The notes beneath the pieces are model-generated. The model saw only the letters and a program-made list of their open reading frames with translations. It had not been told where the DNA came from and ran no database searches. Source: Brachyspira aalborgi (GTDB lineage Bacteria; Spirochaetota; Brachyspiria; Brachyspirales; Brachyspiraceae). From it: 64,000 bases of DNA. The stretch is from contig NZ_SAXU01000001.1 in the NCBI RefSeq assembly GCF_008016455.1, forward strand, positions 1,488,001 through 1,552,000. The letters run 5' to 3'. The position numbers and the translations under genes are program-made. Numbering within the stretch: position 1 is the first letter of the stretch; each line of letters starts with the position of its first letter. This document shows, piece by piece, positions 33,452 to 58,889 of the stretch.

Positions 33452-33480
33452 TTGACAAATAATATTTTTTGTATTATACT
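33452..33480 (+). promoter_or_regulatory. Promoter of array-containing leader and 3-hydroxybutyrate dehydrogenase
   Basis: TTGACA (33452-33457), a 17-nt spacer, TATACT (33475-33480). Only six bases (33481-33486) separate the -10 box from the ATG at 33487, so the transcript should begin at or next to that ATG. Confidence 0.75.
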
Positions 33481-33486
33481 AATAAT

Positions 33487-33762
33487 ATGATTAATCTAAT
33501 TTATACTATCATGAACGCAACGCAACGCAACGCAACGCAACGCAACGCAACGCAACGCATTAGCGAAAATTTATTTAAAATTATTTTTTCACGCTCTCAA
33601 TTACGCGTCTTTTATAATATTAATTTATTCAAAAAATATCATTATATTTTTTATAAAAATTTAAATTTTTGGAGGAACAATTATGAGTTTAAAAGGAAAA
33701 GTTGCTTTAGTAACAGGTTCGGCAAGCGGTTTAGGAAAAGCTTCCGTGCAAAGATTATCTAA
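33487..33762 (+). CDS. Near-leaderless leader ORF through AACGC array
   Basis: ATG at 33487 lies 6 nt after the -10 box, so initiation would be leaderless; there is no ribosome-binding site. It encodes MINLIYTIM, then (NATQR)x3 from the pentamer array, then 67 more codons ending at 33762, i.e. 80 nt inside the dehydrogenase gene in another frame. With one more unit (n=1 mod 3) the ORF would instead stop at 33662-33664, 18 nt before the dehydrogenase ATG. With n=2 mod 3 it stops at once (TAG 33561). It is probably a regulatory leader peptide rather than a functional protein. Whether it is translated is not known. Confidence 0.45.
   Translation: MINLIYTIMNATQRNATQRNATQRISENLFKIIFSRSQLRVFYNINLFKKYHYIFYKNLNFWRNNYEFKRKSCFSNRFGKRFRKSFRAKII
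33514..33558 (+). repeat. Pentanucleotide array AACGC x9
   Basis: Nine exact tandem AACGC (GCAAC) units in the 5' leader of the 3-hydroxybutyrate dehydrogenase transcript, about +28 to +72 from the predicted start. No stop in any frame within the array. Confidence 0.97.
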
Positions 33763-34465
33763 AGACGGAGCGGCGGTAGTCGTAGCAGACTTGAATCTTG
33801 AAGGCGCTAAACAAGTAGCCGAAGAGATTAATTCAAGCGGAGGAAAGGCAATTGCCATTTCAATGGATGTTACGAGCGAAGAGGATGTAAATAACGGTTT
33901 CAAAAAGACTATAACCGATTTAGGCGGAATCGATATAGTTTTTTCAAATGCTGGTATTCAAATAGTTCATCCTATAGAAGAATTCCCTTTTGCAGAATGG
34001 AAAAAAATGATGGCTATTCATGCGGACGGAGCTTTTTTAACGGCAAAAGCGGCGTTTACTGAAATGAAAAAGTCAGGCAAAGGCGGACAAATTTTATTTA
34101 TGGGTTCGGCTCATTCTCATTTAGCTTCGCCTTTCAAATCGCCTTATTGTTTTGCAAAACATGGGCTTTTGGGACTTGCAAGAGTTTTGGCAAAAGAGGG
34201 CGGCGAATTTAATATTCACACTTATGTAATATGTCCTGGATTTGTTAGAACTCCTTTAGTTGAAAAACAAATACCCGAACAAGCTAAAATAAAGGGAATT
34301 ACCGAAGAAGAAGTTATAAGCACAATCATGTTAAAAGATACGGTTGATAAAAAATTTACGACTTTAGAAGAAGTCGCTAATTTGGTTTCTTTCTTCGCAC
34401 ATGATGAAGCTGGAGTTATGACTGGACAATCATTATTGGTAAGTCATGGCTGGGGAATGTGTTAA
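33683..34465 (+). CDS. bdhA: 3-hydroxybutyrate dehydrogenase (SDR family)
   Basis: A 260-residue short-chain dehydrogenase close to bacterial D-3-hydroxybutyrate dehydrogenases. Cofactor motif TGSASGLGKA (~11-20), NAGIQ (~90), catalytic Ser in GSAHSH and Tyr-x3-Lys in YCFAKHG (~155-159), and CPGFVRTPLVEKQIPEQA, a substrate-lid block typical of this enzyme. It interconverts 3-hydroxybutyrate and acetoacetate with NAD. GGAGGA ribosome-binding site at 33671. It is followed by a GntP permease, suggesting uptake and oxidation of external 3-hydroxybutyrate. The leader contains the AACGC array. Confidence 0.92.
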   Translation: MSLKGKVALVTGSASGLGKASVQRLSKDGAAVVVADLNLEGAKQVAEEINSSGGKAIAISMDVTSEEDVNNGFKKTITDLGGIDIVFSNAGIQIVHPIEEFPFAEWKKMMAIHADGAFLTAKAAFTEMKKSGKGGQILFMGSAHSHLASPFKSPYCFAKHGLLGLARVLAKEGGEFNIHTYVICPGFVRTPLVEKQIPEQAKIKGITEEEVISTIMLKDTVDKKFTTLEEVANLVSFFAHDEAGVMTGQSLLVSHGWGMC

Positions 34466-34483
34466 ATGTAAAGGAGGTAAATA

Positions 34484-35782
34484 ATGTTAGGTATTTTACT
34501 CGGTTTAATATGTCTAGCGTTTCTTACATATAAAGGAATGTCTATTCTATGGGTTGCGCCCGTTTCGGCTTTAGTAGTGGCGGCGTTTGGCGGAATGAAT
34601 TTGCTTGACGCGTTTACGGGAGATTTTATGAAAGCTTTTGGCGGATACGCTACAAGTTGGTTTCCTATGTTTATGCTTGGAGCAATATTCGGAAAAGTTA
34701 TGGAGGTTACGGGAGCTGCGGAAAGTATAGCGCATTTTCTCGCTAAAAAAATAGGTTATAAAAGAGCAATAATAGCGGTTGTCGTTATATGCGGAGTTTT
34801 AACTTATGGCGGAGTGTCTTTATTCGTTGTAGTATTCGTTATGTATCCTATGGGACTCGCTTTATTTAGAGAGGCTAATCTTCCAAGAAAAATGCTTCCT
34901 GGCTCAATAGCTTTAGGCGCTTTCGCTTTTACAATGACGGCGTTTCCTGGAACTCCTCAACTTACAAATGTTATACCCGCGACTTATTTCGGAACAGGTC
35001 CTATGAGCGCTCCCGTAATCGGTATAATATGCGGTATCTTAATGTTTATATTAGGAATATTATGGCTTCAATATAGAACTAAAAAATTGCAAGCTGCGGG
35101 AGAAGTTTTTGACGAACCCGAAGGCGAGACTACGGCGGGAGTTTCAAATCCTGAAGATTTGCCAAAATGGTATCTTGCCATAATACCGCCGCTACTAATT
35201 ATAATTTTATTCAATGCGGTAAAATTAAATATAGTTGTCGCTTTGCTTGTCGGAGTTTTAGCTGGCATAATAATATTTATAAGAAGATTAAAAACTTTCG
35301 GCAATGTAATAAAAACATTAAATGACGGCGCGTCTGGCTCTATGCTTGCGATTCTTAATACGGCTGCTGGAGTAGGTTTTGGAGGAGTAATAAAAGCGGT
35401 TCCTGGTTTTGAACAATTAAAAACTTTGGTAACGGGAATAGACGCTTCGCCTTTAATATCGGAAGCTATAGCGATTAATGTTTTGGCGGGAGCTACAGGT
35501 TCTTCTTCTGGCGGAGTTTCAATAGTTTTGGAAGCTTTAGGTCCGCAATTTATAGAATTGGCTAAACAAAGCGGAATAGCTTTAGAGGTTTTCTCAAGAG
35601 TGGCTTCAATATCGGCTGGCGGTTTGGATACTCTCCCTCAATGCGGCGCCGTGTTGACGGTTCTTGCCGTAACAAAATTAACGCATAAAGATTCTTATAT
35701 TGATATATTTATGTGTTGCACGGTAATTCCTATATCGGCTACTATACTCGCTATAATATTAGGAACACTCGGCATTGTATAA
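34484..35782 (+). CDS. GntP family permease, likely 3-hydroxybutyrate or related hydroxyacid
   Basis: A 432-residue membrane protein with about 12 hydrophobic segments. GntP blocks are visible: FMLGAIFGKVMEVTGAAESIA (~63-83), GAFAFTMTAFPGTPQ (~144-158), and GATGSSSGGVSIVLEALGP late in the protein. Family members carry gluconate, glycerate, lactate or beta-hydroxybutyrate. Its place 18 nt after the dehydrogenase points to a C4 hydroxyacid substrate (inference). AAGGAGG ribosome-binding site. Confidence 0.9.
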   Translation: MLGILLGLICLAFLTYKGMSILWVAPVSALVVAAFGGMNLLDAFTGDFMKAFGGYATSWFPMFMLGAIFGKVMEVTGAAESIAHFLAKKIGYKRAIIAVVVICGVLTYGGVSLFVVVFVMYPMGLALFREANLPRKMLPGSIALGAFAFTMTAFPGTPQLTNVIPATYFGTGPMSAPVIGIICGILMFILGILWLQYRTKKLQAAGEVFDEPEGETTAGVSNPEDLPKWYLAIIPPLLIIILFNAVKLNIVVALLVGVLAGIIIFIRRLKTFGNVIKTLNDGASGSMLAILNTAAGVGFGGVIKAVPGFEQLKTLVTGIDASPLISEAIAINVLAGATGSSSGGVSIVLEALGPQFIELAKQSGIALEVFSRVASISAGGLDTLPQCGAVLTVLAVTKLTHKDSYIDIFMCCTVIPISATILAIILGTLGIV

Positions 35783-35805
35783 TAAAATTTTTTTGATAAA
35801 TAAAA

Positions 35806-35842
35806 AAGCGGTAGAGATTTATTTTCTATCGCTTAATTTTTT
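35806..35842 (+). terminator. Rho-independent terminator
   Basis: AAGCGGTAGA, short loop, TCTATCGCTT, then a T-rich tail, after the GntP gene. Confidence 0.75.
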
Positions 35843-36041
35843 ATAATTAATATAGAATTCATTTATTAATTAAAGTAAATTTTTAAAATTAACTTTCTTT
35901 AATCTGGATTGCCATGCCTTCTTACGAAGGCTCGCAATGACGGTATTTTTTGCAATTAAAAATTTTGTTTTAACTTCTAACATATTTTTTAATTAATGTT
36001 AAAATTATTCCATAAATTAAAAAATATTTAAATTAATTATA
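35843..36041. other. AT-rich intergenic region with dispersed repeat
   Basis: Between the GntP terminator and the tandem promoters of the next gene. No ORF; contains dispersed repeat copy 3. Confidence 0.5.
35858..35945 (-). repeat. Dispersed palindromic repeat, copy 3 (inverted)
   Basis: An AT-rich near-palindrome (35858-35903) is followed by GGATTGCCATGCC...CTCGCAATGACGG; its complement reads GTCATTGCGAG as in copy 1 at 5494. The AT-rich arm aligns with 15060-15105. Confidence 0.5.
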
Positions 36042-36254
36042 TTGACTTTATTTTAAAAGATTGTATTATAATTAATAAACATTTAAATTATTTTGTTGAC
36101 AAAAATTTTAAATGTTGTAAAATATTATTTAATTAATTAAAATAAATAGTTGACAAATTTTTTTAAAATTATAAAATATTATTAAATTAAATTAATCAAT
36201 ATTGAAAAAAATTTAAAATAAACTATTGACTAATTTTTTTAAATGTTGTATAAT
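36042..36254 (+). promoter_or_regulatory. Four tandem sigma70-type promoters upstream of phase-variable OMP gene
   Basis: Four -35/-10 pairs in direct orientation: TTGACT 36042 with TATTAT 36064 (16-nt spacer); TTGACA 36096 with TAAAAT 36118 (16); TTGACA 36150 with TAAAAT 36172 (16); TTGACT 36226 with TATAAT 36249 (17). The surrounding sequence is repetitive, so they look like duplicated promoter units. Only the last lies close to the gene. Confidence 0.65.
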
Positions 36255-36300
36255 TTAATTGTAAAAGTATTTGCCGAGAAATCGGTGAGGAAAGTTTGAT

Positions 36301-36998
36301 ATGAAAATTACGATAAATAACAATACTGTAAATTTGTTAAGCAAAGCAAAGCAAAGCAAAGCTTAAGCAAAGATGCTAAAGATGTGTATCAGAAAGGGGG
36401 GTTAAGCGCCGATGCGGATGTCAGCGCGCAAATCGGTTATATGTTCCAAGTCAAAGAAGGCTTCGGAATAAGCGTTTTGGGTGAATTAGGTTATAGCTGG
36501 GATATTTACAGTATGGGCTATGGCGATACAACGGTATCAGGTGTTAGTGGTAGCTATATCGCTAAAGACGGGGTTGATTTTATTCAATACTATCATAGCT
36601 TCAAAATTGGATTATTGCCTAAATTCAATATTGGTTTAGGAGGAAGACATGGACTTGCTATAGGAATTGGCGGAGGAGTTAAAATCCCTCTTGCTGGAAA
36701 ACAGTCGCTTACTGTTACGACAGCAGGCAATAATCATGCAACAAGCGAAGACGCTAAAACACAAACCGATATTGCCCTTAAAAGAAAAGACATAACCGAT
36801 ATGTTCTCGCCTTCAGTTATCGGATACATGAAAGTGACTTTCGATTATTATTTGTTCTTCACGGATAATATCGGCATGAATTTCGGTTTATATTTGGCTG
36901 GAGATTTTGGTCCGAAGCTTAAAGATACAAAGGTTAAGATAAACGACTCTTTTGACATCGGGCTTCAATTAGGATTTAGATTTGGTCCGAAAGCTTAA
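36301..36998 (+). CDS. Outer-membrane beta-barrel protein, currently out of frame at GCAAA array
   Basis: The ATG at 36301 follows a good ribosome-binding site (GGTGAGGAAAG) but hits a TAA at 36364 directly after the array. The main open frame (36384-36998 from a GTG) encodes ~204 residues of barrel protein: QIGYMFQVKEGFGISVLGELGYSWD, LPKFNIGLGG, KVTFDYYLFFTDNIGMN, LAGDFGPKLKD, LQLGFRFGPKA. It is paralogous to the protein at 11100-11822. Removing one pentamer (or adding two) joins the ATG in frame: ...LLSKAKQSLSKDAKDVYQKGG. Even then no signal peptide is visible, so the N-terminus may be rearranged or export unusual. Has its own terminator. Confidence 0.7.
36341..36362 (+). repeat. Pentanucleotide array GCAAA x4 (plus partial unit)
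   Basis: Four exact GCAAA units plus GC, inside the first 20 codons of the outer-membrane protein gene; the flanks on both sides carry TTAAGCAAAG. The present count causes an immediate stop; 3 or 6 units would be in frame. Confidence 0.95.
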
Positions 36999-37045
36999 AA
37001 ATCTTTTTCAAAATTTTTCATATAAATTCTAAAACACTTGATTTG

Positions 37046-37080
37046 CGGTTTATACTTAATTGTATAAACCGTTTTTTTTA
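37046..37080 (+). terminator. Rho-independent terminator
   Basis: CGGTTTATAC (37046-37055) pairs perfectly with GTATAAACCG (37062-37071), then a T8 run. Confidence 0.9.
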
Positions 37081-37190
37081 TTTAATAAAGTAATTTATTA
37101 AAAGTGTATTATTCGGCAAAGGCGGTTTTTAGTTTTGGTTAAAGCTATTGTAATGACTAATTTTTGATAAAATAAAAAATATAAAAAACT

Positions 37191-38126
37191 CTAAAAAGGA
37201 TTAATCAAATTCTTATTTTTAATAAAATTAATCGGAGTTAAAATTATATAAGAAATTAAAAAATTGAATAAAGAAATAATACATGAAAATATTAAAAGCG
37301 AAGAATAAATATTTAAATTCTGATTTATAAATAATAATATATATTCTGGTATTTTAATATTAAATAATATTTTTATAATTAAAAGTAAAGTATTAAATAT
37401 TAAAGATAAAGCAAATATAAAAAGCATTCCTTTCCAAGCATGCGAAATGTCGGCGGGGCTTAATTCCATATGCGAGGCAATAGAAATTGAAAGATAAATA
37501 AAAATCCAAAATCCGATATTCTTAAAAGATTGATTTGATAGAATATTTTTAATAATATTTTTAAATATATTCGCTATTGAAATAAATATATTTGAAATTC
37601 CGCTATAAATCATATTTAATATTCCCGCCGATTTGTCATAATCGATATTAATCGAAAAAATATTTTCTTTAAGTTCGGGCGCTAATAATAAAAAAAGAAA
37701 ATAAACTATTAAAGCGCCAATTATAATAGGTCCAACGCCAATAAAAAAATTTCCTATTTGTTGATACCAGCTTCTTGAATCGTAGCTATGAAGAACATAA
37801 CCTATAGTTTCCGATTTCGTGGTAAATAATTTTATATCGTTTATTTTATGATTAAATATAATACAAAATAATGCATGCGATAATTCATGAATCGGAGTTC
37901 CAATCCAGCCTGTTATATAAAGTTCGGTTTTTGCGCCTAAAGTTTTTGCAAATATTCTTCTTGTCATTGAAGAGAGAACATATAAAATAAAACCGAAAAT
38001 TATTATATTTCCAAATAATCTAAATAAATCTATAAAAGTTTTTGAGAAAATAATCGCTATAAAATAAATTATATCTTTAAAAGTTTGCATAAACATTTTT
38101 ATTTTATCGGAATTAAAATAAATCAT
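37191..38126 (-). CDS. Membrane protein with HExxH metalloprotease-like motif
   Basis: A 311-residue protein with about six hydrophobic segments. GTPIHELSHALFCIIF (~residue 78-93) contains HELSH, an HExxH zinc motif set within a hydrophobic segment, as in M50-type or DUF3267-like intramembrane proteins; a clear second zinc ligand is not assigned. It could be a site-2-protease-like enzyme or a non-peptidase relative. The start has no strong ribosome-binding site, and ATGs at codons 11 and 13 are alternatives. Monocistronic; no partner gene hints at a substrate. Confidence 0.6.
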   Translation of the reverse strand: MIYFNSDKIKMFMQTFKDIIYFIAIIFSKTFIDLFRLFGNIIIFGFILYVLSSMTRRIFAKTLGAKTELYITGWIGTPIHELSHALFCIIFNHKINDIKLFTTKSETIGYVLHSYDSRSWYQQIGNFFIGVGPIIIGALIVYFLFLLLAPELKENIFSINIDYDKSAGILNMIYSGISNIFISIANIFKNIIKNILSNQSFKNIGFWIFIYLSISIASHMELSPADISHAWKGMLFIFALSLIFNTLLLIIKILFNIKIPEYILLFINQNLNIYSSLLIFSCIISLFNFLISYIILTPINFIKNKNLINPF

Positions 38127-38242
38127 AATAATTGAAATAAAATAAAAATTTTTTATTATAATTTTTATTAATTACTACTTGAAGTAATTTTAATTATAAT
38201 GTATAATTAAAAGATTAAAAATTAAATTTAAGGAGTTGCTAT

Positions 38243-39643
38243 ATGCATAACAAAAATGATAATCAAAAAAGAGAAAAACTTTCAAGCAGGTTAGGTTTTT
38301 TATTAGTCTCGGCGGGATGCGCTATAGGACTTGGCAATATATGGCGATTTCCTTATATAACGGGAAAATATGGAGGCGCTGCTTTCGTTATAATTTATTT
38401 AATATCTTTACTTATATTAGGGCTTCCAATATTAATAATGGAGTTTAGCATCGGTAGAGGAGGACAAAGCGATATTGCAGGCTCTTATAAGGTTTTGGAA
38501 AAAGAAGGACATAAATGGCATATAATCGGTTATATTCAAATGTTAGGTTGTTTAATTTTAATGATGTTTTACACAAGCGTTACAGGTTGGAGCATAACCT
38601 ACGCTTATTATATGCTTACGGGAGCTACTGAAGGACTTAAGCCTGAAGAGATAGGGCAATTTTTTGGTTCTATGCTTTCAAATCCTAAAATTATGGTTTT
38701 AAGTTTATTTATAGCCGTTTTTTTAGGAAGTTTAATTTGTTTTAAGGGACTTCAAAAAGGCGTTGAAAAAACTACAAAAATAATGATGTCGTCTCTATTT
38801 ATAATGATGCTTATATTGATAATAAGAGCTATAACTTTGCCTGGCGCCGTTGAAGGAATAAAATTTTATTTGCTTCCCGATTTGGGAAAAATATTTAACG
38901 AAGGCGGAATAAAAAATTTTTTGGAAGTAGTTTATGCGGCTATGGGACAATCTTTTTTTACTTTAGGAATAGGAGTTGGAAGTATGACTATTTTCGGAAG
39001 CTATATCGGAAAAGAAAAATCGATTACAAACGAATCTATAATAATAGTTATATTAGACACTTTAGTCGCATTATCGGCGGGCTTAATAATATTTCCCGCT
39101 TGTTTTGCTTTCGGAGTAAATCCAGGCGAAGGAGCGGGTTTAGCGTTCGTTACTTTACCTAATATTTTTAACTTAATGCCTTTGCCAAGATTATGGGGAA
39201 CTTTATTTTTTATATTTTTATCAGCAGCGGCGTTGACTACTGTAGTCGCGGTTTTTGAAAATTTAATCGCTTTCACTATGTCGGAGTTTAAAATAAAAAG
39301 AACTTACGCTTCCGTTATAGTTGGAATAGTAGCGTTTATGTTGGCATTAACTACAGCTTTAGGTTTTAATGTTTTATCTTTTATTCAACCTATGGGAGAA
39401 GGAACAAGTTTTTTAGATTTATACGATTTTATAGTGAGTTATAATTTGGTAGAATTAGGCGGAATCTATATAATTATATTCTGCGTTTCAAAATATGGTT
39501 GGGGATGGGATAATTTTATTAACGAAGTCGATTCAGGTGAGGGAATAAAATTTCCAAAATCATCAAGAATATATGTGACTTATATTTTGCCTTTAATTTT
39601 ATTTGCAATATTTATTGTAAATTATATAAATAAATTCTCATAA
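38243..39643 (+). CDS. Neurotransmitter:sodium symporter family transporter
   Basis: A 466-residue NSS (LeuT-fold) transporter with about 12 membrane segments. The family signature SAGCAIGLGNIWRFPYITGKYGG (~23-45) holds the Na+ and substrate sites; later blocks include GQSFFTLGIGVGSM and FLSAAALTTVVAVFEN. Bacterial members take up amino acids such as tryptophan, tyrosine or leucine with Na+. AAGGAG ribosome-binding site. Monocistronic with terminator. Confidence 0.95.
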   Translation: MHNKNDNQKREKLSSRLGFLLVSAGCAIGLGNIWRFPYITGKYGGAAFVIIYLISLLILGLPILIMEFSIGRGGQSDIAGSYKVLEKEGHKWHIIGYIQMLGCLILMMFYTSVTGWSITYAYYMLTGATEGLKPEEIGQFFGSMLSNPKIMVLSLFIAVFLGSLICFKGLQKGVEKTTKIMMSSLFIMMLILIIRAITLPGAVEGIKFYLLPDLGKIFNEGGIKNFLEVVYAAMGQSFFTLGIGVGSMTIFGSYIGKEKSITNESIIIVILDTLVALSAGLIIFPACFAFGVNPGEGAGLAFVTLPNIFNLMPLPRLWGTLFFIFLSAAALTTVVAVFENLIAFTMSEFKIKRTYASVIVGIVAFMLALTTALGFNVLSFIQPMGEGTSFLDLYDFIVSYNLVELGGIYIIIFCVSKYGWGWDNFINEVDSGEGIKFPKSSRIYVTYILPLILFAIFIVNYINKFS

Positions 39644-39678
39644 ATATATTTTCTTATTTAATTTTTAATTAATATTTT

Positions 39679-39720
39679 AAGGACGGCATTAATTTAATTT
39701 TTGTCGTCCTTTAATATTTT
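39679..39720. terminator. Bidirectional terminator between convergent genes
   Basis: AAGGACGGCA (39679-39688) pairs with TGTCGTCCTT (39702-39711), followed by a T-rich tail. It serves the symporter gene and could serve the convergent gene at 39726. Confidence 0.75.
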
Positions 39721-39725
39721 TGTAA

Positions 39726-40427
39726 TTATTGCGATAAACTATACCAATCGTTATAATTTTTATCCACAGCGGATAAGAATACATCGATAACAGATTTTAT
39801 AGCTTTATCGTCTACAAAAATAACATATTCGTAGCCTTTATAAAATATATTTATAGAATCATCCCTTAAACATTTATAATTGCATGCGCTAGAATCAAAA
39901 TAGGTTTTAAATGTTTTAAGATTATTAAAAGTAGAAGATTCATTTCTTAAAATAATTTTTTTAGGCTCTCCATAATAATCGGGCAACTTTCCCGACTCTC
40001 TTGTATCGTTATAAAAAATATTTTGTCTTAAACCCGAAACCTTATATAAATATAAATCTTCTACTCCAACTCTATCTTGAGAGTAAAATCTTGTTTGCAA
40101 CAATATTTTTGGATTATCTTTACTCGTATTAAAATAACTTATGCCTTTAAGTTCAACCGATATAAATATTTTTCCATGCGGAGTATCCGTTGTGTATATA
40201 AATGCAAAAACCATTTTTGGCAAATATGTAATTCGATTATTTTCCCATATTATATTTAAACTCTCTTCTTTTTGAGTAGAATATAAAAATTGAGCTTCTT
40301 TAAAATTTAAAGCTTCATCTCCAAAACAATTTATATTAATCGCTAATAATAAAATTAAAATCGTTATTGTTAGTTTAATTATTTTTTGTTTTGAACTTAA
40401 AAATCTATTGTCTATTTTATTATTCAT
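39726..40427 (-). CDS. Secreted protein of unknown function
   Basis: A 233-residue protein. A hydrophobic stretch at ~17-35 (KLTITILILLLAININCFG) after a charged N-terminus acts as a signal peptide, with a possible lipobox-like ININC. The body is beta-rich and Asn/Lys-rich (GKIFISVELKGISYF, GYEYVIFVDDKAIKSVID), with a lone CNYKC motif. No family recognised. AAGGAA precedes the ATG at 40427. The gene lies downstream of the minus-strand promoter at 40722-40750 and the GCAAA array, so its expression may depend on array length. Confidence 0.6.
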   Translation of the reverse strand: MNNKIDNRFLSSKQKIIKLTITILILLLAININCFGDEALNFKEAQFLYSTQKEESLNIIWENNRITYLPKMVFAFIYTTDTPHGKIFISVELKGISYFNTSKDNPKILLQTRFYSQDRVGVEDLYLYKVSGLRQNIFYNDTRESGKLPDYYGEPKKIILRNESSTFNNLKTFKTYFDSSACNYKCLRDDSINIFYKGYEYVIFVDDKAIKSVIDVFLSAVDKNYNDWYSLSQ

Positions 40428-40544
40428 TTTAATTTCCTTAATTTATTTTTTATATTAAACGATATAATTTATATAAAATATTTTTTAAAATTATTGATAA
40501 ACTTAAATAAAAAATATTTATATTTATGCAATTACAAAATGCGA

Positions 40545-40715
40545 CTAAAGAATTAACCATATTAAAAAACTGCGATAAATAAAATTTGGAATAGTTATTA
40601 AAAAAATACAATTCACACTTTGCTTTGCTTTGCTTTGCTTTGCTTTGCTTTGCTTTGCTTTGCTTTGCTTAACAAAATTATAGTATGTCAACTTACAGTG
40701 AATATTTTCAATCAT
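40545..40715 (-). CDS. Near-leaderless leader ORF through GCAAA array
   Basis: ATG at 40715 lies 6 nt after a -10 box, the same geometry as at 33487. It reads MIENIHCKLTYYNFVK, then (QSKAK)x3, then 24 more codons to the TAG at 40545-40547, 117 nt upstream of the secreted-protein gene. If the array held a multiple of three units, the frame would stay open for 54 further codons to a TAA at 40450-40452, 22 nt before the ATG at 40427. With n=2 mod 3 it stops just after the array. Too short for standard callers. Likely a regulatory leader; translation unproven. Confidence 0.4.
   Translation of the reverse strand: MIENIHCKLTYYNFVKQSKAKQSKAKQSKAKQSVNCIFLITIPNFIYRSFLIWLIL
40618..40670 (-). repeat. 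Pentanucleotide array GCAAA x10 (minus strand)
   Basis: Ten exact CTTTG units on the plus strand (40618-40667) plus CTT, i.e. GCAAA on the minus strand. On the minus strand it is preceded by ACTATAATTTTGTTAAGC, nearly the same sequence that precedes the array at 36341. Confidence 0.97.
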
Positions 40716-40721
40716 AATTAT

Positions 40722-40750
40722 ATTTTAGCATACCTTTTTATTTCTGTCAA
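40722..40750 (-). promoter_or_regulatory. Promoter for array leader and secreted-protein gene
   Basis: On the minus strand TTGACA (40750-40745), a 17-nt spacer, and extended -10 TGCTAAAAT (hexamer 40727-40722). It points leftward into the array and the gene at 39726-40427. The ATG at 40715 lies at the expected transcription start. Confidence 0.7.
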
Positions 40751-40773
40751 TAGTTTATTTTACTTTAACTATA

Positions 40774-40816
40774 TTGATTTGTTTTATATATTCGTATATA
40801 ATTATATTATAATATA
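40774..40816 (+). promoter_or_regulatory. arsR promoter and candidate operator
   Basis: TTGATT (40774-40779), a 17-nt spacer, TATAAT (40797-40802). A perfect 14-bp palindrome TATATTATAATATA (40803-40816) covers the expected start, where an ArsR/SmtB repressor would bind. The operator call is tentative in such AT-rich DNA. Confidence 0.5.
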
Positions 40817-40846
40817 GTTATATATAAAAAATAAAAGGTTGATATT

Positions 40847-43184: not shown

Positions 43185-43216
43185 ATAAATTTAAATAGAA
43201 TTTAAGTAAAGTAAAA

Positions 43217-45016: not shown

Positions 45017-45026
45017 GGAATTTAAA

Positions 45027-49556: not shown

Positions 49557-49589
49557 TTTATCCTCAATTTTTAATTTTTTATTCTTAAA

Positions 49590-50999: not shown

Positions 51000-51040
51000 A
51001 ATAACCTCTCAAATAAAAAACTGTTTAAAAAAATTTTTGC

Positions 51041-51286: not shown

Positions 51287-51421
51287 AAATCAAACTAAAT
51301 ATTATATAATAGTTATAAAATCCTTTATGATAAACTTAATAGTTGTTCATTTAGGTATTATAAATTATATAATAAATCTTTTATTTTGTAAATAGTTTAT
51401 TAATTTTTTTTTAAAAAGCGC

Positions 51422-51450
51422 TTGATTTCGTAATTATTTTATACTATACT
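51422..51450 (+). promoter_or_regulatory. Promoter of hydrogenase structural operon
   Basis: TTGATT (51422-51427), a 17-nt spacer, TATACT (51445-51450), upstream of the NuoE-like gene (GGAGG ribosome-binding site at 51475). It lies in the ~200-bp divergent region shared with the maturase operon. Confidence 0.6.
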
Positions 51451-51485
51451 ATATATAGTTTAATTAAAATTTATGGAGGTATAGA

Positions 51486-51980
51486 ATGAGCGAAAACGCC
51501 GCTTTTTTAACCGAAGAGCCAATTAGCGATTGTATCAAAAAATTAGTCGAAGAATGGGAAAACATTGAAGGTAATCTTATAATGATTTTTCATGGCATTC
51601 AAAAGCATTACGGATATGTTCCTAGAAATGTAGCTAAATATGTATCGGAAGCTATAGATGTTCCGCTTACAAGAATATATGAAATATTAACTTTCTATAA
51701 CTATTTTACAATGGAACCGCCTGCTGAAAATCACATATCGGTTTGTATGGGAACTGCTTGCTATTTAAATGGAGCAAAAGATTTGATTGACGAAGTAAAA
51801 TCAAAACTTTCTTTAAAAGGCGAACAGCAATATTCCGAAGACAGAAAATATAAATTGGAAGAAGTTAGATGCATAGGTTGTTGCGGTTTATCTCCCGTTA
51901 TTACTTTTAACGGCGAAGTTAAGGGAAGGGTAAAGCCTGAAGAAATTTCAAAACTTATAGAAGATAATAATAATAAATAA
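51486..51980 (+). CDS. hndA: NADH-linked [FeFe]-hydrogenase, NuoE-like [2Fe-2S] subunit
   Basis: A 164-residue thioredoxin-fold ferredoxin. Cluster ligands: CMGTACYLNGA (C-x4-C, ~88) and RCIGCCGLSPV (C-x3-C pattern, ~125). The N-terminal helices (GIQKHYGYVPRNV) match NuoE/HydC. It passes electrons between the flavin subunit and the hydrogenase subunit. First of three co-directional genes. Confidence 0.93.
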   Translation: MSENAAFLTEEPISDCIKKLVEEWENIEGNLIMIFHGIQKHYGYVPRNVAKYVSEAIDVPLTRIYEILTFYNYFTMEPPAENHISVCMGTACYLNGAKDLIDEVKSKLSLKGEQQYSEDRKYKLEEVRCIGCCGLSPVITFNGEVKGRVKPEEISKLIEDNNNK

Positions 51981-51992
51981 TGGGAGTAAATT

Positions 51993-53672: not shown

Positions 53673-53700
53673 AATAAAATTTAAATTTAAGGATAAAATT

Positions 53701-55449
53701 ATGATTAAAATAAAAATAAACGGAAAAAATTTAGAAGTTGAAGATAATATTACGATATTAAAAGCGGCTAAAAAAGTGGGAATAAAAATTCCAACTCTAT
53801 GTTATCATCCCGATATTCATCCAACTTCGGCTTGCGGTATTTGTATGGTTAAACTTGCAAATATGGGCAATAAATATGTTAGAGCATGTTCTATGCTTGT
53901 TGAAGAAGGAATGGATATTATAACTCATGACGCCGAAATAAATATGGTTAGAAAAGGAGTTTTGGAACTTGTTTTATCCGCTCATCCTAACGATTGTTTA
54001 AATTGCATAAGAAACGGAAACTGCGAACTTCAAACCGCAGCCGCCGATTTTGGAGTTAGAAATTCAAAATTCGACAATATAAAACAGAATCATCCGAGAG
54101 ACGAAACAGCAGGAAGCATAGTGCTTAATCCTGAAAAATGTATAAAATGCGGAAGATGTGTAGTCGTTTGTCAAGAAATGCAAAAAGTTCATGCATTAGG
54201 TTTTGTAAATAGAGGATTTGACACTTATTTTGCGCCCGTTGGAGTTTCGCTTAAAGATTCTACTTGCGTTGATTGTGGACAATGCGCCACTCACTGCCCT
54301 GTAGCCGCAATATACGAAAAAGTCGACACTAAAGAAGTTATGGACGCTTTGGATAATCCCGATATTTATGTTACGGTTCAAATGGCGCCTTCGGTTAGAG
54401 TGGCTTTGGGAGAATATTTCGGACTTAAAGCGGGAGATAATATTACGGGAAAAATATACGCCGCTATGCGTTTATTAGGATTCGATGCAATATTCGATAC
54501 AAATTTTGGAGCGGATATGACTATAGTAGAAGAAGCTAACGAGTTTGTTAAAAGATTTACCGAAAGCAACGGCACGGCTGTAATGACTACTTCATGCTGT
54601 CCCGCTTGGGTAAAATATATAGAAGAATATTATCCCGATTTGCTTGATAATGTTTCAACTTCAAAATCTCCTCATATGATGCTAGCGCCTATGGTTAAAA
54701 CATATTATGCGGAAAAAATGAAATTAAATCCTGCAAAAATATATAATGTTTCAATAATGCCTTGCACCGCTAAAAAGAATGAAATCAGAAAAAACGATAC
54801 AATGAAATCAAGCGGATATAACGATGTAGATGTCGTTATAACTACAAGAGAGTTTGCGAGAATGATAAAACGATACGGAATAGATTTAGCGGGAATACAA
54901 GAGGAAAAAGCGGACAGCATACTTGGAGAATATAGCGGAGCGGGAACGATTTTCGGAGCTACAGGCGGAGTTATGGAGGCGGCTTTAAGAACGGCTTATA
55001 ATGTTATAGCGGGTTCTAATCTTGAAAATGTAGAATTTAACGATGTGAGAGGATTAAAAAATGTTAAAAAAGCTACAGTAAAGATTTTAGATAAGGATGT
55101 TAAAATAGCCGTAGTAAACGGACTTCATAATGTCGACCCTGTTATGCAAGAGATAAGAAAGGCAAAAGAAAAAGGCGAAAATCCTCCTTATAATTTTGTA
55201 GAGGTTATGGCTTGTCCAGGCGGATGCGTTGGTGGAGGCGGACAACCTTACGGAACTACCAACGAGGTAAGAGTAGATAGAGCTAAAGGATTATACACGG
55301 AAGATAAAAAAGTCGTTAAACATAGATGTTCGCATGATAACGAGCATATAAAAATACTTTATAAAGACTTCTTGGGAGAACCTTTAGGAGAAAAACCGCA
55401 TCATTATTTGCATACCGAATATAAGAAAGCGGAAAAATATACAAAATAA
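53701..55449 (+). CDS. hydA: NADH-linked [FeFe]-hydrogenase catalytic subunit
   Basis: A 582-residue group-A hydrogenase; start at ATG 53701 behind AAGGA. N-terminal [2Fe-2S] (CYHPDIHPTSACGICM), His-ligated [4Fe-4S] (HPNDCLNCIRNGNC), two [4Fe-4S] (CIKCGRCVVVCQ and CVDCGQCATHCPV). H-cluster motifs: TTSCCPAWVKY (~296), MPCTAKKNE (~350) and MACPGGCVGGGGQP (~505). With the NuoE- and NuoF-like subunits it produces or consumes H2 coupled to NADH, probably with ferredoxin. Divergent maturase genes supply its H-cluster. Confidence 0.96.
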   Translation: MIKIKINGKNLEVEDNITILKAAKKVGIKIPTLCYHPDIHPTSACGICMVKLANMGNKYVRACSMLVEEGMDIITHDAEINMVRKGVLELVLSAHPNDCLNCIRNGNCELQTAAADFGVRNSKFDNIKQNHPRDETAGSIVLNPEKCIKCGRCVVVCQEMQKVHALGFVNRGFDTYFAPVGVSLKDSTCVDCGQCATHCPVAAIYEKVDTKEVMDALDNPDIYVTVQMAPSVRVALGEYFGLKAGDNITGKIYAAMRLLGFDAIFDTNFGADMTIVEEANEFVKRFTESNGTAVMTTSCCPAWVKYIEEYYPDLLDNVSTSKSPHMMLAPMVKTYYAEKMKLNPAKIYNVSIMPCTAKKNEIRKNDTMKSSGYNDVDVVITTREFARMIKRYGIDLAGIQEEKADSILGEYSGAGTIFGATGGVMEAALRTAYNVIAGSNLENVEFNDVRGLKNVKKATVKILDKDVKIAVVNGLHNVDPVMQEIRKAKEKGENPPYNFVEVMACPGGCVGGGGQPYGTTNEVRVDRAKGLYTEDKKVVKHRCSHDNEHIKILYKDFLGEPLGEKPHHYLHTEYKKAEKYTK

Positions 55450-55478
55450 AAATAAAGTAAAATAACGAAGAAAATTAT

Positions 55479-55520
55479 AAAGCGTATCCGTCAGGCAAAA
55501 ATGATTGATACGCTTTTTTA
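55479..55520 (+). terminator. Rho-independent terminator
   Basis: AAAGCGTATC (55479-55488) pairs perfectly with GATACGCTTT (55507-55516), followed by T run. Confidence 0.88.
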
Positions 55521-55644
55521 TTTAATCGATATATTAGATTAATAAATCGCTTATTTATATAATAATTTTTTCAAATATTTTTATCGATTATAAATTTTTA
55601 ATAAATAATATATAATTAATAAAAAATTATTTAGAGGCTAAATT

Positions 55645-56658
55645 ATGAATAAAGATTTAATTAAAGAAATAAAAATAACGGATATAGAAAATATAAAAAT
55701 TGGAAACGCCGAAAACGAAAAAGCGGGAACGGGTTGCACTGTTATAATTTGCGAAAATGGAGCTATAACGGGATTAGACATTAGAGGCGGAGGACCGGCT
55801 TCAAGAGAAAGCGAACTTACAAAACCTTTTGCTTCTGCAGAAGTTATTCATGCAGTTTTATTAAGCGGAGGAAGCGCGTTCGGACTTGATGCGGCGGGCG
55901 GAGTAATGAAATATTTAGAAGAGAGGAATATTGGTTTCGATGTCGGCGTCACAAAAGTTCCTTTGGTTTGCGCTTCTTGTATATTCGATTTAAGAGTGGG
56001 AGATTATAAAATTCGTCCCGATGCTAAAATGTCTTATAAAGCTTGCATTAACGCAGAAAAAAATAATCCTCAAATGGGAAATTTTGGAGCGGGAGCGGGA
56101 GCGACAGTAGGCAAAATATTAGGATTAGATTATGCAATGAAATCGGGACTCGGTTTTTACGCTTTGCAAATGGGAAATTTAAAAGTCGGCGCTATAGTTT
56201 CGGTTAATGCTTTTGGCGATATTTTTGATTATGAAAGCGGAAAAATGATAGCGGGGCTTCTTGATATTGATAAAAAAAGATTTAGAAATTCCGAAGAAGA
56301 GCTAATAAAAATAGCCGAAGATAAAAATCTTTCTTTTGATATAGAAAAAAATAATTCTATAACAAACACTACTATAGGAGCGATTATAACAAACGCTAAA
56401 TTTACAAAATCTCAAATGGGAAAAATTGCATCGATGTCGCATAACGGATTTGCAAGGACAATAAAACCCGTTCATACGACTTTAGACGGAGATAGTATTT
56501 ATGCAATGTCGGTTGGAAATGTAAATGCAAATTTGGACGCGGTCGGAAGTATATCAGCAATCGTTATGGGAAAAGCTATAAACTCGGCTATAGTAAATAC
56601 AAAATCCGCTTATGGTTTTAAGGCTTATAATGAATTGATAAACTTTAACGCTGTTTAA
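55645..56658 (+). CDS. P1-family (S58, DmpA-like) peptidase
   Basis: A 337-residue protein of the DmpA/P1 family (N-terminal nucleophile hydrolases). Conserved GTGCTVIICENGA, GGGPASRESE, LLSGGSAFGLDAAGGVM and GNFGAGAGATVGK. The self-cleavage site with the nucleophile Thr is in SITNTTIGAII (~244). Family members act as aminopeptidases or amidases on small peptides; the substrate is unknown. Monocistronic; the neighbours are unrelated. Confidence 0.9.
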   Translation: MNKDLIKEIKITDIENIKIGNAENEKAGTGCTVIICENGAITGLDIRGGGPASRESELTKPFASAEVIHAVLLSGGSAFGLDAAGGVMKYLEERNIGFDVGVTKVPLVCASCIFDLRVGDYKIRPDAKMSYKACINAEKNNPQMGNFGAGAGATVGKILGLDYAMKSGLGFYALQMGNLKVGAIVSVNAFGDIFDYESGKMIAGLLDIDKKRFRNSEEELIKIAEDKNLSFDIEKNNSITNTTIGAIITNAKFTKSQMGKIASMSHNGFARTIKPVHTTLDGDSIYAMSVGNVNANLDAVGSISAIVMGKAINSAIVNTKSAYGFKAYNELINFNAV

Positions 56659-56693
56659 TTATATAATCTTCAATAACCTAATTTTAATTACTT

Positions 56694-57638
56694 TTATTTA
56701 TACAATTTTACCGAAACTCTTTTAGTTTCATCTTCAAGCCATTTAACAAAAGATTCTCTCATACGAATTTCGCCAAGATAATTTTTAACTCTCGTTCTTA
56801 TGCTGTCCATATCTTTTTCTATAGAAATTATTTTTATGATATAGAAACCTTTTCCGACTAATTCTCTAACCGTGCTAACCGTTCCAACTTGATAGCCGCG
56901 CTTTACTAAATTAAGTCCAGCGTTAATTTGAGCGGGCAAAGATTTTTTCCCTTCGTCATATAAAAGATTATAACCTAAATCTCCGCCGCTATTTTTTGTG
57001 GCGTTATCTTCGCTATATTTTTTTGCAAGTTCGGAAAAATCGCCTCCTCTTGCAGCCAAACCTCTAACCGTATTTGCAATTTGTTGTTTTTCGCCTTTTT
57101 CCGTAAAAGTCGTAGCTTTAAAAAATATCCAAGAAAGTTTTACTAAAGTGTCGACTTCAAATATAGATTTGTCTTTACTATTATTATAAAATTCGTCCGC
57201 TTCGCTATCGCTTATATCGGAATTATTAACTACAAGCCCGCTTAAATTTTCCATAGCGATTTGCTTTTTTATTGAGTTTCTATATTCTTCGTAGGAAATT
57301 CCTTCCGCTCTTAATTGTTTTGAAAATTGTTCTAATGTCATATTATATTGTTTTGCAATGCTGTCTAATCTTCTGCTTACATCGTTTTCTTCTATCGTAT
57401 AATTATATTCTTGAAGTTTCAAATACATTATTCTCTCTTCAACCAAATCTTTATAAACCAAATCGTCATTAATATTTTGTCCAATCGATTTTGCTTGCAA
57501 AGTTAAAAAAGTTCTTCTGCTTATAAAATCTTCGTAAGTAATAGGCATAGAACCGACAATTCCGACTATACTATTAACAACATCGCCGAATAAAATATTA
57601 TTAAATATAAAAAATGATAATATCAAAATTCTTTTCAT
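56694..57638 (-). CDS. Periplasmic peptidyl-prolyl isomerase / SurA-like chaperone
   Basis: A 314-residue protein with a signal peptide (MKRILILSFFIFNNILFG-DV). SurA-type N-terminal helices (EEDVSRRLDSIAKQYNMTLEQF) and a parvulin (PpiC) domain at ~165-270: FSELAKKYSEDNATKNSGGDLGY and GYQVGTVSTVRELVGKGFYIIKI. Probably assists outer-membrane protein folding, as SurA does. Convergent with the peptidase gene. Confidence 0.88.
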   Translation of the reverse strand: MKRILILSFFIFNNILFGDVVNSIVGIVGSMPITYEDFISRRTFLTLQAKSIGQNINDDLVYKDLVEERIMYLKLQEYNYTIEENDVSRRLDSIAKQYNMTLEQFSKQLRAEGISYEEYRNSIKKQIAMENLSGLVVNNSDISDSEADEFYNNSKDKSIFEVDTLVKLSWIFFKATTFTEKGEKQQIANTVRGLAARGGDFSELAKKYSEDNATKNSGGDLGYNLLYDEGKKSLPAQINAGLNLVKRGYQVGTVSTVRELVGKGFYIIKIISIEKDMDSIRTRVKNYLGEIRMRESFVKWLEDETKRVSVKLYK

Positions 57639-57741
57639 TAAATTTCAATTCCTTAAAATATTATTAATTATTAAAACCGTTTATAAAGAATAACATTAAA
57701 ATAATTTATATGCAACCGATTATATAATATATTTTTTGAAA

Positions 57742-58503
57742 TTATAAATCAATATTATGATTTTTTATAAAAATTAAATCGCAATTATTATCCATAAGTT
57801 TTTTATAACCTTTTGAATTCATTAATTCTAAAATTTCATTATAATTTTCATTATATTCTACCGTTATTAAACCGAAAGAATATTTATCAAAATCGATACT
57901 TCTTAATACATCCAACTCGCCGCCTTCTATATCTAAAGACATAAAATCTATATGATTAATATTTTTATAATTTGACATAAGCTCTTCAAATGTTATAGTA
58001 TCAACTTCGATATATTCCATATTATTATCGCTTTCTCTTTCAATTCTTTCTTTATGTCCTGAAGTATTATGAGTATCCAAAACATCCAATACTCCGACTG
58101 TGGAAGTTAAAAATTTTGCTTTTCCAATATTTTTAGAACTCACGGCGCAATTATACAAATCGCATTTTCTATTTTTCTTAAGCGCTTCAAAAGTTTTTGG
58201 ACTTGCTTCAACGCAAAAACCGTCCCAGCCTAATTTTTCAAATATATATGTATTGCTTAAATTTATTCCGTCATAAGCGCCAATATCTATATAAAAACCG
58301 TTCTTTTTATTTTTCAAACATAAATATGCTATAATATCTTGTCCGAATTGTCCTTTAAAATCTAAACCGTAAGTATTAGACATTATTTGCAAATTTAATA
58401 ATAATGAGTTTTTTTCTTTAGATTTTAATAACTTTCTAATATTGTTTCTTAATTGTCTAAACGGTATCCACCAAACTATTCTGTCTATAATATTTGAATT
58501 CAT
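57742..58503 (-). CDS. FkbM-family SAM-dependent methyltransferase
   Basis: A 253-residue protein. SAM motif GFYIDIGAYDGINLSNTYIFEKLGWDG (~70-96), CVEASPKTFEALKKN, and the C-terminal FMSLDIEGGELDVLRSIDF block are FkbM hallmarks. Such enzymes methylate sugars or polysaccharides, so a cell-surface glycan target is plausible. AAGGAG ribosome-binding site at 58516-58511 sits directly after the stop of the upstream leader ORF. The leader carries the 26-unit array. Confidence 0.9.
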   Translation of the reverse strand: MNSNIIDRIVWWIPFRQLRNNIRKLLKSKEKNSLLLNLQIMSNTYGLDFKGQFGQDIIAYLCLKNKKNGFYIDIGAYDGINLSNTYIFEKLGWDGFCVEASPKTFEALKKNRKCDLYNCAVSSKNIGKAKFLTSTVGVLDVLDTHNTSGHKERIERESDNNMEYIEVDTITFEELMSNYKNINHIDFMSLDIEGGELDVLRSIDFDKYSFGLITVEYNENYNEILELMNSKGYKKLMDNNCDLIFIKNHNIDL

Positions 58504-58516
58504 TATTGAACTCCTT

Positions 58517-58852
58517 TTATAAATTTTTTTTATTTATGATTAAATTAAAATTAAGACTAAATTTAAATTGCTGCCTAAATATTTTCATATTTAATAAATG
58601 CATTATTAAATATGAATTTAAAAAATCATAAGAAAATGATTTAATATAATATTGATTTTTTGATAAATTGAATAAAAAGTTTAAATTATTCGCAAGGCAA
58701 GGCAAGGCAAGGCAAGGCAAGGCAAGGCAAGGCAAGGCAAGGCAAGGCAAGGCAAGGCAAGGCAAGGCAAGGCAAGGCAAGGCAAGGCAAGGCAAGGCAA
58801 GGCAAGGCAAGGCAAGGCAAGCGTCAAAAATATAGTATAAATCGTTATTCAT
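58517..58852 (-). CDS. Near-leaderless leader ORF through 26-unit pentamer array
   Basis: ATG at 58852 is 9 nt after a -10 TATAAT, so the mRNA would be almost leaderless. It reads MNNDLYYIFDA, then (CLALP) repeats from the array, then 57 further codons to the TAA at 58517-58519. That stop directly abuts the ribosome-binding site of the FkbM gene (13 nt from its ATG). The other two frames stop within 11 nt after the array (TAA in both). At 26 units, translation would reach the FkbM start region; at other counts mod 3 it would not. The Cys/Leu/Pro peptide itself is unlikely to be a functional protein. Confidence 0.45.
   Translation of the reverse strand: MNNDLYYIFDACLALPCLALPCLALPCLALPCLALPCLALPCLALPCLALPCLANNLNFLFNLSKNQYYIKSFSYDFLNSYLIMHLLNMKIFRQQFKFSLNFNLIINKKNL
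58692..58821 (-). repeat. Pentanucleotide array of 26 units (GCAAG plus strand, CTTGC minus strand)
   Basis: 26 exact tandem units, 130 bp, in the 5' leader of the FkbM methyltransferase transcript. It is the longest of four related arrays and the one most likely to vary in length. Confidence 0.97.
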
Positions 58853-58861
58853 AATGGTATT

Positions 58862-58889
58862 ATTATAACATTAATTAAATTTTTGTCAA
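58862..58889 (-). promoter_or_regulatory. Promoter of array leader and FkbM gene
   Basis: On the minus strand TTGACA (58889-58884), a 16-nt spacer, TATAAT (58867-58862): near-perfect consensus, directed into the array and FkbM. Confidence 0.75.

What the first reader, a model, noticed from the sequence alone, without database searches (positions are those of the whole stretch)
33452..58889. Four GCAA-type pentanucleotide arrays form a common leader-ORF architecture: a possible copy-number translational switch
Arrays AACGC x9 (33514), GCAAA x4 (36341), GCAAA x10 minus strand (40618) and GCAAG x26 (58692) are the only tandem pentamers I see, and all contain GCAA. Each lies on the transcript between a sigma70-type promoter and a gene. 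In three, an ATG sits 6-9 nt after the -10 box, giving a nearly leaderless ORF through the array. A 5-nt repeat is stop-free in all frames, so translation always reaches the far end, where the unit count mod 3 decides the frame. One frame then stays open and ends 18, 22 or 13 nt before the downstream start codon; at least one other frame stops at once. In the fourth the ORF is the gene itself. A run of 54-57 stop-free codons after the array in such AT-rich DNA suggests selection. I know of no described system with this layout.
Basis: partly seen in the sequence, partly recalled or inferred. Interest (0 to 1): 0.93.

Follow-up and report, generated by a model that had tools for sequence, protein, structure and literature searches.

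The report
Repeat-counting leader ORFs in Brachyspira aalborgi
In a human gut spirochaete, dozens of genes sit behind a short upstream reading frame that contains a run of 5- or 7-base repeats, so that the number of repeats probably decides whether ribosomes reach the gene and switch it on: a large, apparently undescribed set of on/off switches.

Summary
Observation confirmed, and it holds far beyond the window. The genome matches Brachyspira aalborgi 513A(T) exactly in size and contig number. The four pentamer arrays are real. Genome-wide there are 24 GCAAN and 5 GAACA arrays, with others in a sample. All 21 exact repeats of period 2-15 found in 464 kb have period 5 or 7, with diverse units, so GCAA is not the common feature. 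The layout is: promoter, ATG, array, then one frame open for about 20-70 codons that ends at, overlaps or fuses with the downstream start. It holds for 32 of 36 scorable loci against 3.3 expected from shuffles, including 8 exact ATGA stop-start overlaps against 0.5 expected. It recurs in relatives with diverged leader sequence or another repeat unit, so what is kept appears to be the open frame and its end point. Best reading: phase variation by slipped-strand change of unit count, acting on a translationally coupled leader ORF rather than on the gene itself. Switching, transcription starts and expression are not shown here; only 4-5 of 36 loci have the leader ATG in the coupled frame in this assembly. 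Known principle; a layout not found in ten literature searches.

The parts
33452..33480 (+). sigma70-like promoter TTGACA-17-TATACT of the SDR leader
33487..33762 (+). leader ORF in its present frame: ATG 33487, through the array, stop TAA 33760-33762, inside the SDR and out of its frame; a change of unit count can move it to a frame ending at 33664 (18 nt before the SDR) or to one that stops at once
33514..33559 (+). (AACGC)9.2 array
33683..34465 (+). downstream gene: short-chain dehydrogenase (adh_short), followed by a GntP-like permease (34484-35782)
36226..36254 (+). promoter TTGACT-17-TATAAT of the cassette-type leader
36273..36294 (+). hairpin CCGA-GAAA-TCGG and Shine-Dalgarno GAGGAAAG before the leader ATG; shared with about a dozen other loci
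36301..36366 (+). leader ORF from ATG 36301, now stopping at TAA 36364 (OFF)
36339..36362 (+). (AAGCA)4.8 array
36363..36998 (+). outer-membrane protein fragment without signal-peptide region; aligns from residue 43 of paralog L062, 70% identical
40722..40750 (-). promoter TTGACA-17-TAAAAT
40450..40715 (-). leader region: ATG 40715-40713; present frame stops at 40547-40545 (OFF); the open frame stops at 40452-40450, 22 nt before the gene
40618..40670 (-). (AAGCA)10.6 array
39726..40427 (-). downstream gene, 233 aa, no Pfam match
58862..58889 (-). promoter TTGACA-16-TATAAT (12 of 12)
58517..58852 (-). leader ORF, 111 aa, ATG 58852 to TAA 58519-58517, 13 nt before the gene (ON)
58692..58821 (-). 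(CTTGC)26 array (GCAAG on the + strand)
57742..58503 (-). downstream gene: FkbM-type methyltransferase

Best explanation
These are phase-variable (contingency) loci that act through a translationally coupled leader ORF. A promoter drives an mRNA that begins with a short ORF crossing an array of 5- or 7-nt units. Because neither unit length is a multiple of 3, slipped-strand gain or loss of units shifts the frame beyond the array. In one frame the ribosome passes through about 20-70 further sense codons and terminates at, just before or across the start codon of the real gene (often ATGA), or runs in frame into it, so the gene is translated. In at least one other frame it usually stops within about 30 nt of the array and the gene is left uncoupled, presumably low or off through lost reinitiation, RNA structure around the start region, or Rho polarity. 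Shown by sequence: arrays, leader ORFs, frame ends, recurrence in relatives, variation of unit number between near-identical cassettes. Inferred: transcription start, translation of the leader, direction of the effect (ON = coupled), and switching in a population.
For: Layout in 32 of 36 own-genome loci with a separable downstream start (10 in-frame fusions, 8 ATGA, 4 overlaps of 5-11 nt, 10 ending up to 25 nt before) against 3.3 expected when the array-to-SD stretch is shuffled with dinucleotides kept; ATGA 8 against 0.46. Longest open frame P<=0.05 in 17 of 19 loci; exceptions 33514 (0.12) and L068 (0.84). SDR ortholog in G006: coding DNA 91% identical, leader 134 of 209 aligned columns with large gaps, a different open-frame peptide, yet its leader ends in ATGA with the SDR start and its ATG is in that frame. 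OMP homologue in another species (G031, 43-49% protein identity): (GCACACA)11 array, open frame of 69 codons ending in ATGA, the other two frames closed at 1 and 9 nt; G021 has the same leader end with 2.7 units. GT61 ortholog in G006 (95% identical): array, and overlap of 11 nt in both. OMP leaders carry GCAAA, GCAAC, ACAGT or GCACACA. Unit numbers 4.8-19.8 behind cassettes 93-97% identical to the window's. In 8 of 8 cassette paralogs with the same array boundary the distance from array to a shared motif is a multiple of 3, with five different lengths (120-168 nt). In 5 sampled arrays where one strand holds stop codons and a downstream gene gives the orientation, the transcribed strand is the stop-free one.
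Against: No expression, TSS, ribosome or within-population data. One assembly per species, so unit variation within a species is not seen. Only 4 of 36 loci (5 with a second ATG at L066) have the leader ATG in the coupled frame, below the 12 expected at random; this may be selection for OFF in culture, or a sign that the start or the ON frame is misassigned at some loci. 4 of 36 loci lack the layout (L068, L132 846, L127, L129 2149) and 5 of 41 arrays were not scored. Many loci are paralogous cassettes, so counts are not independent, and downstream starts were chosen by me, partly with the frame end in view. Many downstream genes have good SD sequences and might be translated without coupling. 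Leader ATG is not visible in G031 because the contig ends in the array. GT61 has the same unit number in both species. Two of the seven arrays with a stop-bearing strand (L132 16244, L129 2149) have no SD start within 320 nt on either strand, and L122 and L129 11003 have gene starts on both sides.
Confidence: 0.78

Rival explanations
1. Ordinary intragenic phase variation: the leader plus array is simply the 5' end of the gene, and the product carries an N-terminal extension in the ON frame.
For: 10 of 36 loci have the open frame fused in frame with the downstream start; L058, L125 and G006 L077 have the array directly inside a gene with a lipoprotein-like signal; other Brachyspira have a heptamer array inside a gene (L036, L044).
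Against: 22 of 36 loci end at another frame's start codon or just before it, so the gene product cannot include the leader. In 9 of the 10 fused loci the internal ATG has its own AAGGAG or longer SD, most before a lipoprotein-like signal.
Confidence: 0.12
2. The arrays are spacers or DNA/RNA elements that tune promoter strength, mRNA stability or RNA structure by length, without translation (as with repeats in a 5' UTR or promoter).
For: Some leaders carry a conserved hairpin element with compensatory changes, so the region may also have an RNA role; arrays lie downstream of promoters, in the 5' leader.
Against: A non-translated spacer has no reason to keep one stop-free frame that ends on the start codon, to use only periods 5 and 7, or to keep length differences of multiples of 3 (8 of 8 paralogs; the raw nucleotide alignment of 12 paralogs also has gaps of 1, 2, 13 and 37 nt, the 37 with a compensating 1, the 2 and 13 at L061, which I judge not alignable there).
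Confidence: 0.07
3. Leader translation in the open frame represses the gene (ribosomes occlude its start region), so that the stopped frames are ON.
For: 28 of 36 loci are now in stopped frames, 29 with L121 4267, and would then be expressed; three loci have frames that run past the start out of frame (33514 by 77 nt, L129 2149 by 116, G006 L075 by 14).
Against: ATGA and short overlaps are the usual signature of positive coupling (established knowledge, recalled); exact overlap is not needed for occlusion.
Confidence: 0.1
4. Relics or chance: microsatellites in AT-rich intergenic DNA with fortuitous open frames.
For: No functional data; 33514 alone is not significant (P 0.12); a few arrays break the layout.
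Against: 32 of 36 against 3.3 expected; recurrence in other species.
Confidence: 0.03

Closest known systems
Simple-sequence-repeat phase variation (contingency loci) of Neisseria, Haemophilus, Campylobacter, Moraxella
   Same: Slippage-prone repeats whose unit length is not a multiple of 3, placed so that unit number sets a reading frame; among the genes are lipoprotein-like proteins, outer-membrane proteins and a glycosyltransferase.
   Different: In the described cases I recall (opa CTCTT, mod AGTC, sclB CAAAA; recalled, not tested) the array lies in the gene itself; others lie in promoters or UTRs. Here most arrays lie in a separate leader ORF, and only periods 5 and 7 occur in the sample.
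Translational coupling by overlapping stop and start codons (ATGA)
   Same: 8 own loci plus G006 L072, L075, L111 and the OMP leaders of G031, G021 and G002 show exact ATGA overlap; others overlap by 5-11 nt or end within 25 nt.
   Different: Coupled upstream genes normally encode proteins of their own (recalled); here the upstream ORF seems to be a device without a clearly conserved peptide and contains a mutable array.
Leader-peptide attenuation (trp-type)
   Same: Short 5' ORF whose translation state decides downstream expression.
   Different: No terminator-like site in the three window leaders scanned; control by unit number, not by a metabolite.
H. pylori tlpB/hp0102 G-repeat leader (PMC8295292, seen in search listings with the start of the abstract only)
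   Same: Variable repeat in an mRNA leader sets downstream gene expression.
   Different: Works through an sRNA that targets the repeat, not through reading frame.

Membership tests
SSR-mediated phase-variable (contingency) locus | Pure short tandem array with unit length not divisible by 3 | tested here: met
   All 21 exact repeats of period 2-15 in 464 kb are period 5 (16) or 7 (5); two of the 21 are short low-complexity runs
SSR-mediated phase-variable (contingency) locus | Array placed where unit number decides gene expression by frame | tested here: met
   Position: 32 of 36 loci against 3.3 expected; the effect on expression itself was not testable
SSR-mediated phase-variable (contingency) locus | Unit number varies faster than flanks | tested here: met
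   Paralogous cassettes 93-97% identical to the window's with 4.8-19.8 units; against: the GT61 ortholog has 10.6 units in both species
SSR-mediated phase-variable (contingency) locus | Reversible switching within a clone | not testable with these tools
   No reads or further isolates of this species were available to me
Translational coupling | Upstream stop at or overlapping downstream start | tested here: met
   8 ATGA, 4 overlaps, 10 within 25 nt, of 36; 10 more fused in frame
Translational coupling | Downstream translation depends on upstream translation | not testable with these tools
   Predicted SD-region accessibility is mixed, 5-62% unpaired over 26 leaders folded
trp-type attenuation | Intrinsic terminator in the leader | tested here: not met
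   0 terminator-like sites in the three window leaders scanned
Rfam families | Hairpin element before the SD matches a known family | tested here: not met
   7 loci searched, 5 with the hairpin; the 4 matches (2 tRNA, 1 plastid element over a tRNA, 1 weak sRNA) lie elsewhere

The most novel reading that the evidence does not exclude
Brachyspira has a genus-wide, so far undescribed phase-variation system in which the mutable element is a dedicated leader ORF, selected to be stop-free and to terminate on the next gene's start codon rather than for any peptide. B. aalborgi has expanded it to the order of a hundred loci with diverse 5- and 7-nt units; the 400 kb sample holds 15 arrays after dropping two low-complexity runs, which scales to about 94 per genome. 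Units are replaced over evolution while the coupling geometry is kept.
Probability: 0.6. Interest if true: 0.86.

Novelty: new variant of a known kind. Interest (0 to 1): 0.8.

Why it matters
If right, a densely colonising human gut spirochaete has a very large set of on/off switches, covering lipoprotein-like and outer-membrane proteins, a glycosyltransferase, a methyltransferase, GTPases and, in G006, a nuclease-like gene. It would be a portable way to make any gene phase-variable: place a repeat-bearing leader ORF in front of it without touching the protein. It also offers a natural test of how much coupling, RNA structure and Rho contribute when a leader ORF shifts frame. Such switches are easy to miss, because they lie in short leader ORFs outside the gene they would control.

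Tried and rejected
GCAA as the defining feature: rejected. GAACA (5 loci), ACAGT and nine further units occur; of those nine, seven have the layout at one or more loci, AAGAG is intragenic (L125) and AACCTTC (L127) fails it. Leader peptide as a functional protein: no sign of protein-level conservation in two pairs of homologous leaders (17 non-synonymous to 2 synonymous codon differences; 10 to 4), but numbers are small and the first pair is unreliable beyond about 31 codons. Intrinsic terminator: none found in three leaders. SD masking as a general mechanism: mixed predictions. The hairpin as the switch itself: absent from several array leaders, and in 7 of 8 further places viewed it has no long array nearby, some of them cut by contig ends. 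Within-species length variation: could not be tested.

Mended during checking: I first took the gene behind G006 L076 for an ortholog of the FkbM gene. Only its leader and first 26 residues match (62%); the rest is a different protein, DUF1796. It is therefore used only as a homologous leader with 5 instead of 26 units. In one search the start of L053 was set at +482 instead of +153 (found).

Rows dropped: of 41 own-genome arrays (24 GCAAN, 5 GAACA, 12 others from the sample), 5 were left out of the 36-locus test: window 36341, L058 and L125 (array inside the gene), L064 first array (run of N after it), L132 16244 (no start found). Two arrays found later in L204 are not in the count. None of the 12 G006 loci with arrays is in it: L072, L075, L111 end in ATGA, L076 and L074 overlap by 5 and 11 nt, L110 by 11, L112 by 38-44; L077 is intragenic, L078 runs in frame into a long ORF, L113 gave no gene start, L073 and L109 end at a contig end.

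None listed a paper on repeat-based phase variation in Brachyspira or on a repeat-bearing coupled leader ORF; only open-licence PMC papers are covered, and long listings were capped. PMC6779451 was read in section 8 and in found passages; its Table 3 counts 'repeat regions', and neither 'repeat' nor 'phase' occurs otherwise in a relevant sense. PMC3711429 and PMC11868660 were searched for terms only.
Full report
Identity. The genome holding the window has 2,504,147 bases in 8 contigs, exactly the figures for Brachyspira aalborgi 513A(T) in Table 3 of PMC6779451 (section 8 read). Naming the strain is an inference from that match. G006, a fragmented genome of the same genus, is the only other of 13 Brachyspira genomes searched that has five GCAAN units in a row; the other 11 have none.

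The observation. Array 58692 belongs to the minus-strand FkbM methyltransferase, not to the divergent MATE gene at 58973.

How far it extends. GCAAN arrays: 24 in the genome (18 GCAAA of 21 nt or more; one shorter at 2355995; five with GCAAC or GCAAG). A promoter-leader cassette (promoter, CCGA-GAAA-TCGG hairpin, GAGGAAAG, ATG...TTTGTT, array) occurs at 15 places, 86-100% identical to the window's; 13 of them have arrays of 4.8-19.8 units, L090 has an interrupted one and L091 about one unit. A further locus found through its promoter match (L105) carries GAACA units, which led to five GAACA arrays. In an evenly spaced 400 kb sample plus the window (464 kb), all 21 exact repeats of period 2-15 (at least 3.4 copies, at least 17 nt; homopolymers apart) are period 5 (16) or 7 (5); two are short low-complexity runs (AAAAC, AAATAAT). 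In 453 kb of other Brachyspira there are 4 such repeats, again only period 5 or 7, three of them probably the same gene in three species and two cut by contig ends. Scaling 15 sample arrays gives about 94 in the genome; this is an extrapolation.

The layout test. For 36 own-genome arrays with a separable downstream start I asked whether, in any phase, the frame after the array fuses in frame with that start, overlaps it by 1-11 nt, or ends up to 25 nt before it. It does in 32 (10 fused, 8 ATGA, 4 overlaps, 10 near). With the array-to-SD stretch shuffled (dinucleotides kept, 500 times each, last 18 nt and gene unchanged) the expected sum is 3.3, and 0.46 for ATGA. Start positions were chosen by me from ORFs with an SD or with a start close to the frame end, which favours hits somewhat; at short leaders chance is high (L140 0.58, L069 0.46, L122 0.40). 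Paralogous cassettes inflate the count, but the ATGA cases outside the cassette family (L067, L071, L129 11003, L137 8883, L122, L121 4267) and the near or overlapping cases at 40618, 58692, L069, L119 and L140 have other sequences. Counter-examples: L068 (3.8 units), L132 846, L127 and L129 2149.

Comparisons between species. (a) SDR: the ortholog in G006 is 91% identical in DNA, while the leaders align at 134 of 209 columns with large gaps; G006 has 3.8 GCAAC units, its leader ATG is in the open frame and that frame ends in ATGA with the SDR start. In the other 24 genus genomes the best SDR match is 36% identical, so among these 26 the gene is confined to the two. (b) GT61 glycosyltransferase: 95% identical proteins, 10.6 units in both, stopped in both, overlap of 11 nt in both, no SD found by the script. 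(c) Outer-membrane protein: leaders with GCAAA (L062), GCAAC (L066) and ACAGT (L204) here; in G031, whose protein is 43-49% identical, (GCACACA)11 with a 69-codon open frame ending in ATGA; G021 the same end with 2.7 units; G002 the same end with the contig cut. In G031 the contig ends in the array, so its leader ATG is not seen. (d) The leader of 58692 has a homologue in G006 (L076) with 5 instead of 26 units, in the stopped frame, its open frame ending 5 nt past the first base of the start; but the gene behind it is different (only the first 26 residues match; DUF1796), so leaders also travel between genes. (e) G026: (ATCAA)44 in a leader whose ATG frame has its stop 24 nt before a start codon of what looks like a broken gene (distance read from the printed sequence). 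(f) In-gene heptamers in L036 and L044 show that intragenic arrays also exist in the genus.

What is selected. In 8 of 8 cassette paralogs with the same array boundary the distance from the array end to a shared motif is a multiple of 3, with five different lengths of 120-168 nt; L059 and L070 have another boundary and cannot be compared. L063 has a 1-nt loss near the end, which turns fusion into ATGA overlap. In two pairs of homologous leaders codon differences are mostly non-synonymous and spread over the three positions (17 to 2; 10 to 4); this is weak evidence, because numbers are small and part of the first alignment is unreliable. Together with the SDR case it suggests that openness and end point are kept rather than the peptide. 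Seven sampled arrays have stop codons on one strand only. In five of these a downstream gene gives the orientation (L129 11003 and L122 by ATGA, though both have a gene start on the other side too; L121 14098, L119, L127 by the only gene) and the transcribed strand is the stop-free one; the other two (L132 16244, L129 2149) were oriented only by ATG and promoter.

States. In this assembly the leader ATG is in the coupled frame at 4 of 36 loci (58692, L064 second array, L119, L143), or 5 with a second ATG at L066; two run past the start (33514, L129 2149); 28 are stopped, 29 with L121 4267, whose ATG lies 75 nt upstream. One third ON would be expected at random. This may reflect selection in culture or misassigned frames.

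RNA element. Thirteen aligned leaders share a two-helix element shortly before the SD; 11 pairs, 100% of cells paired, all five inner pairs with changes on both sides (3 of 500 shuffles as high), sliding controls at 31-44%; one measure, the number of further pair types, does not exceed the shuffles (457 of 500 as high). A model of it matches 15 places here and 12 of 26 genus genomes at E up to 0.001; in several of the eight further places viewed it precedes OMP or lipoprotein-like genes, with a long array in one of them. Its role is unknown; in the coupled frame ribosomes would unfold it.

Genes downstream. Lipoprotein-like proteins (signal sequences judged by eye), OMP beta-barrels (PF13505 in L066), Glyco_transf_61, FkbM methyltransferase, SDR, ABC transporter ATPase, dynamin- and septin-like GTPases, radical SAM/SPASM, TM2 and zinc-finger proteins; a SpoIID protein (L068) and a methyltransferase (L127) follow arrays that fail the layout test; in G006 a PD-(D/E)XK nuclease-like protein.

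Verdict. Repeat-number phase variation is known; a repeat-bearing, translationally coupled leader ORF used at dozens of loci was not found in the ten searches of open-licence papers.

Noticed in passing
L006:1674-1724, L111:3285-3335 and 11 more (alignment A1): Conserved two-helix RNA element before the SD of lipoprotein-like and OMP genes, with compensatory changes in all five inner pairs; matches in 12 of 26 Brachyspira genomes; no Rfam match at it in the loci searched.
   Followed up: partly
36015-36254: Promoter-like segment (TTGACA...TATAAT) repeated with a period of about 54-55 nt upstream of the cassette; promoter-only matches lie at 17 further places in the genome.
   Followed up: no
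L119-L138 (400 kb sample): Four G or C runs of at least 8 nt in the B. aalborgi sample and none in 453 kb of other Brachyspira: possible further slippage sites.
   Followed up: no
L155 (G026) 10695-10915: (TTGAT)44 array in another Brachyspira species, before a start codon whose ORF is interrupted by an early stop.
   Followed up: partly
L110, L112, L113, L078 (G006): Leader open frames in G006 contain an extra dispersed segment (peptides with FAKN...) that keeps the frame open.
   Followed up: no
L091 (G000:C1:1971278-1971399): Cassette leader with only about one repeat unit before an OMP gene, perhaps a switch fixed in one state.
   Followed up: no
L076 (G006) and window 58501-58852: Homologous leader and first 26 codons in front of two unrelated genes (FkbM methyltransferase here, DUF1796 protein in G006): leaders seem to move between genes.
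   Followed up: partly
L204 5798-5861: A further (CACTC)12.8 array found beside the ACAGT array; its surroundings were not examined.
   Followed up: no
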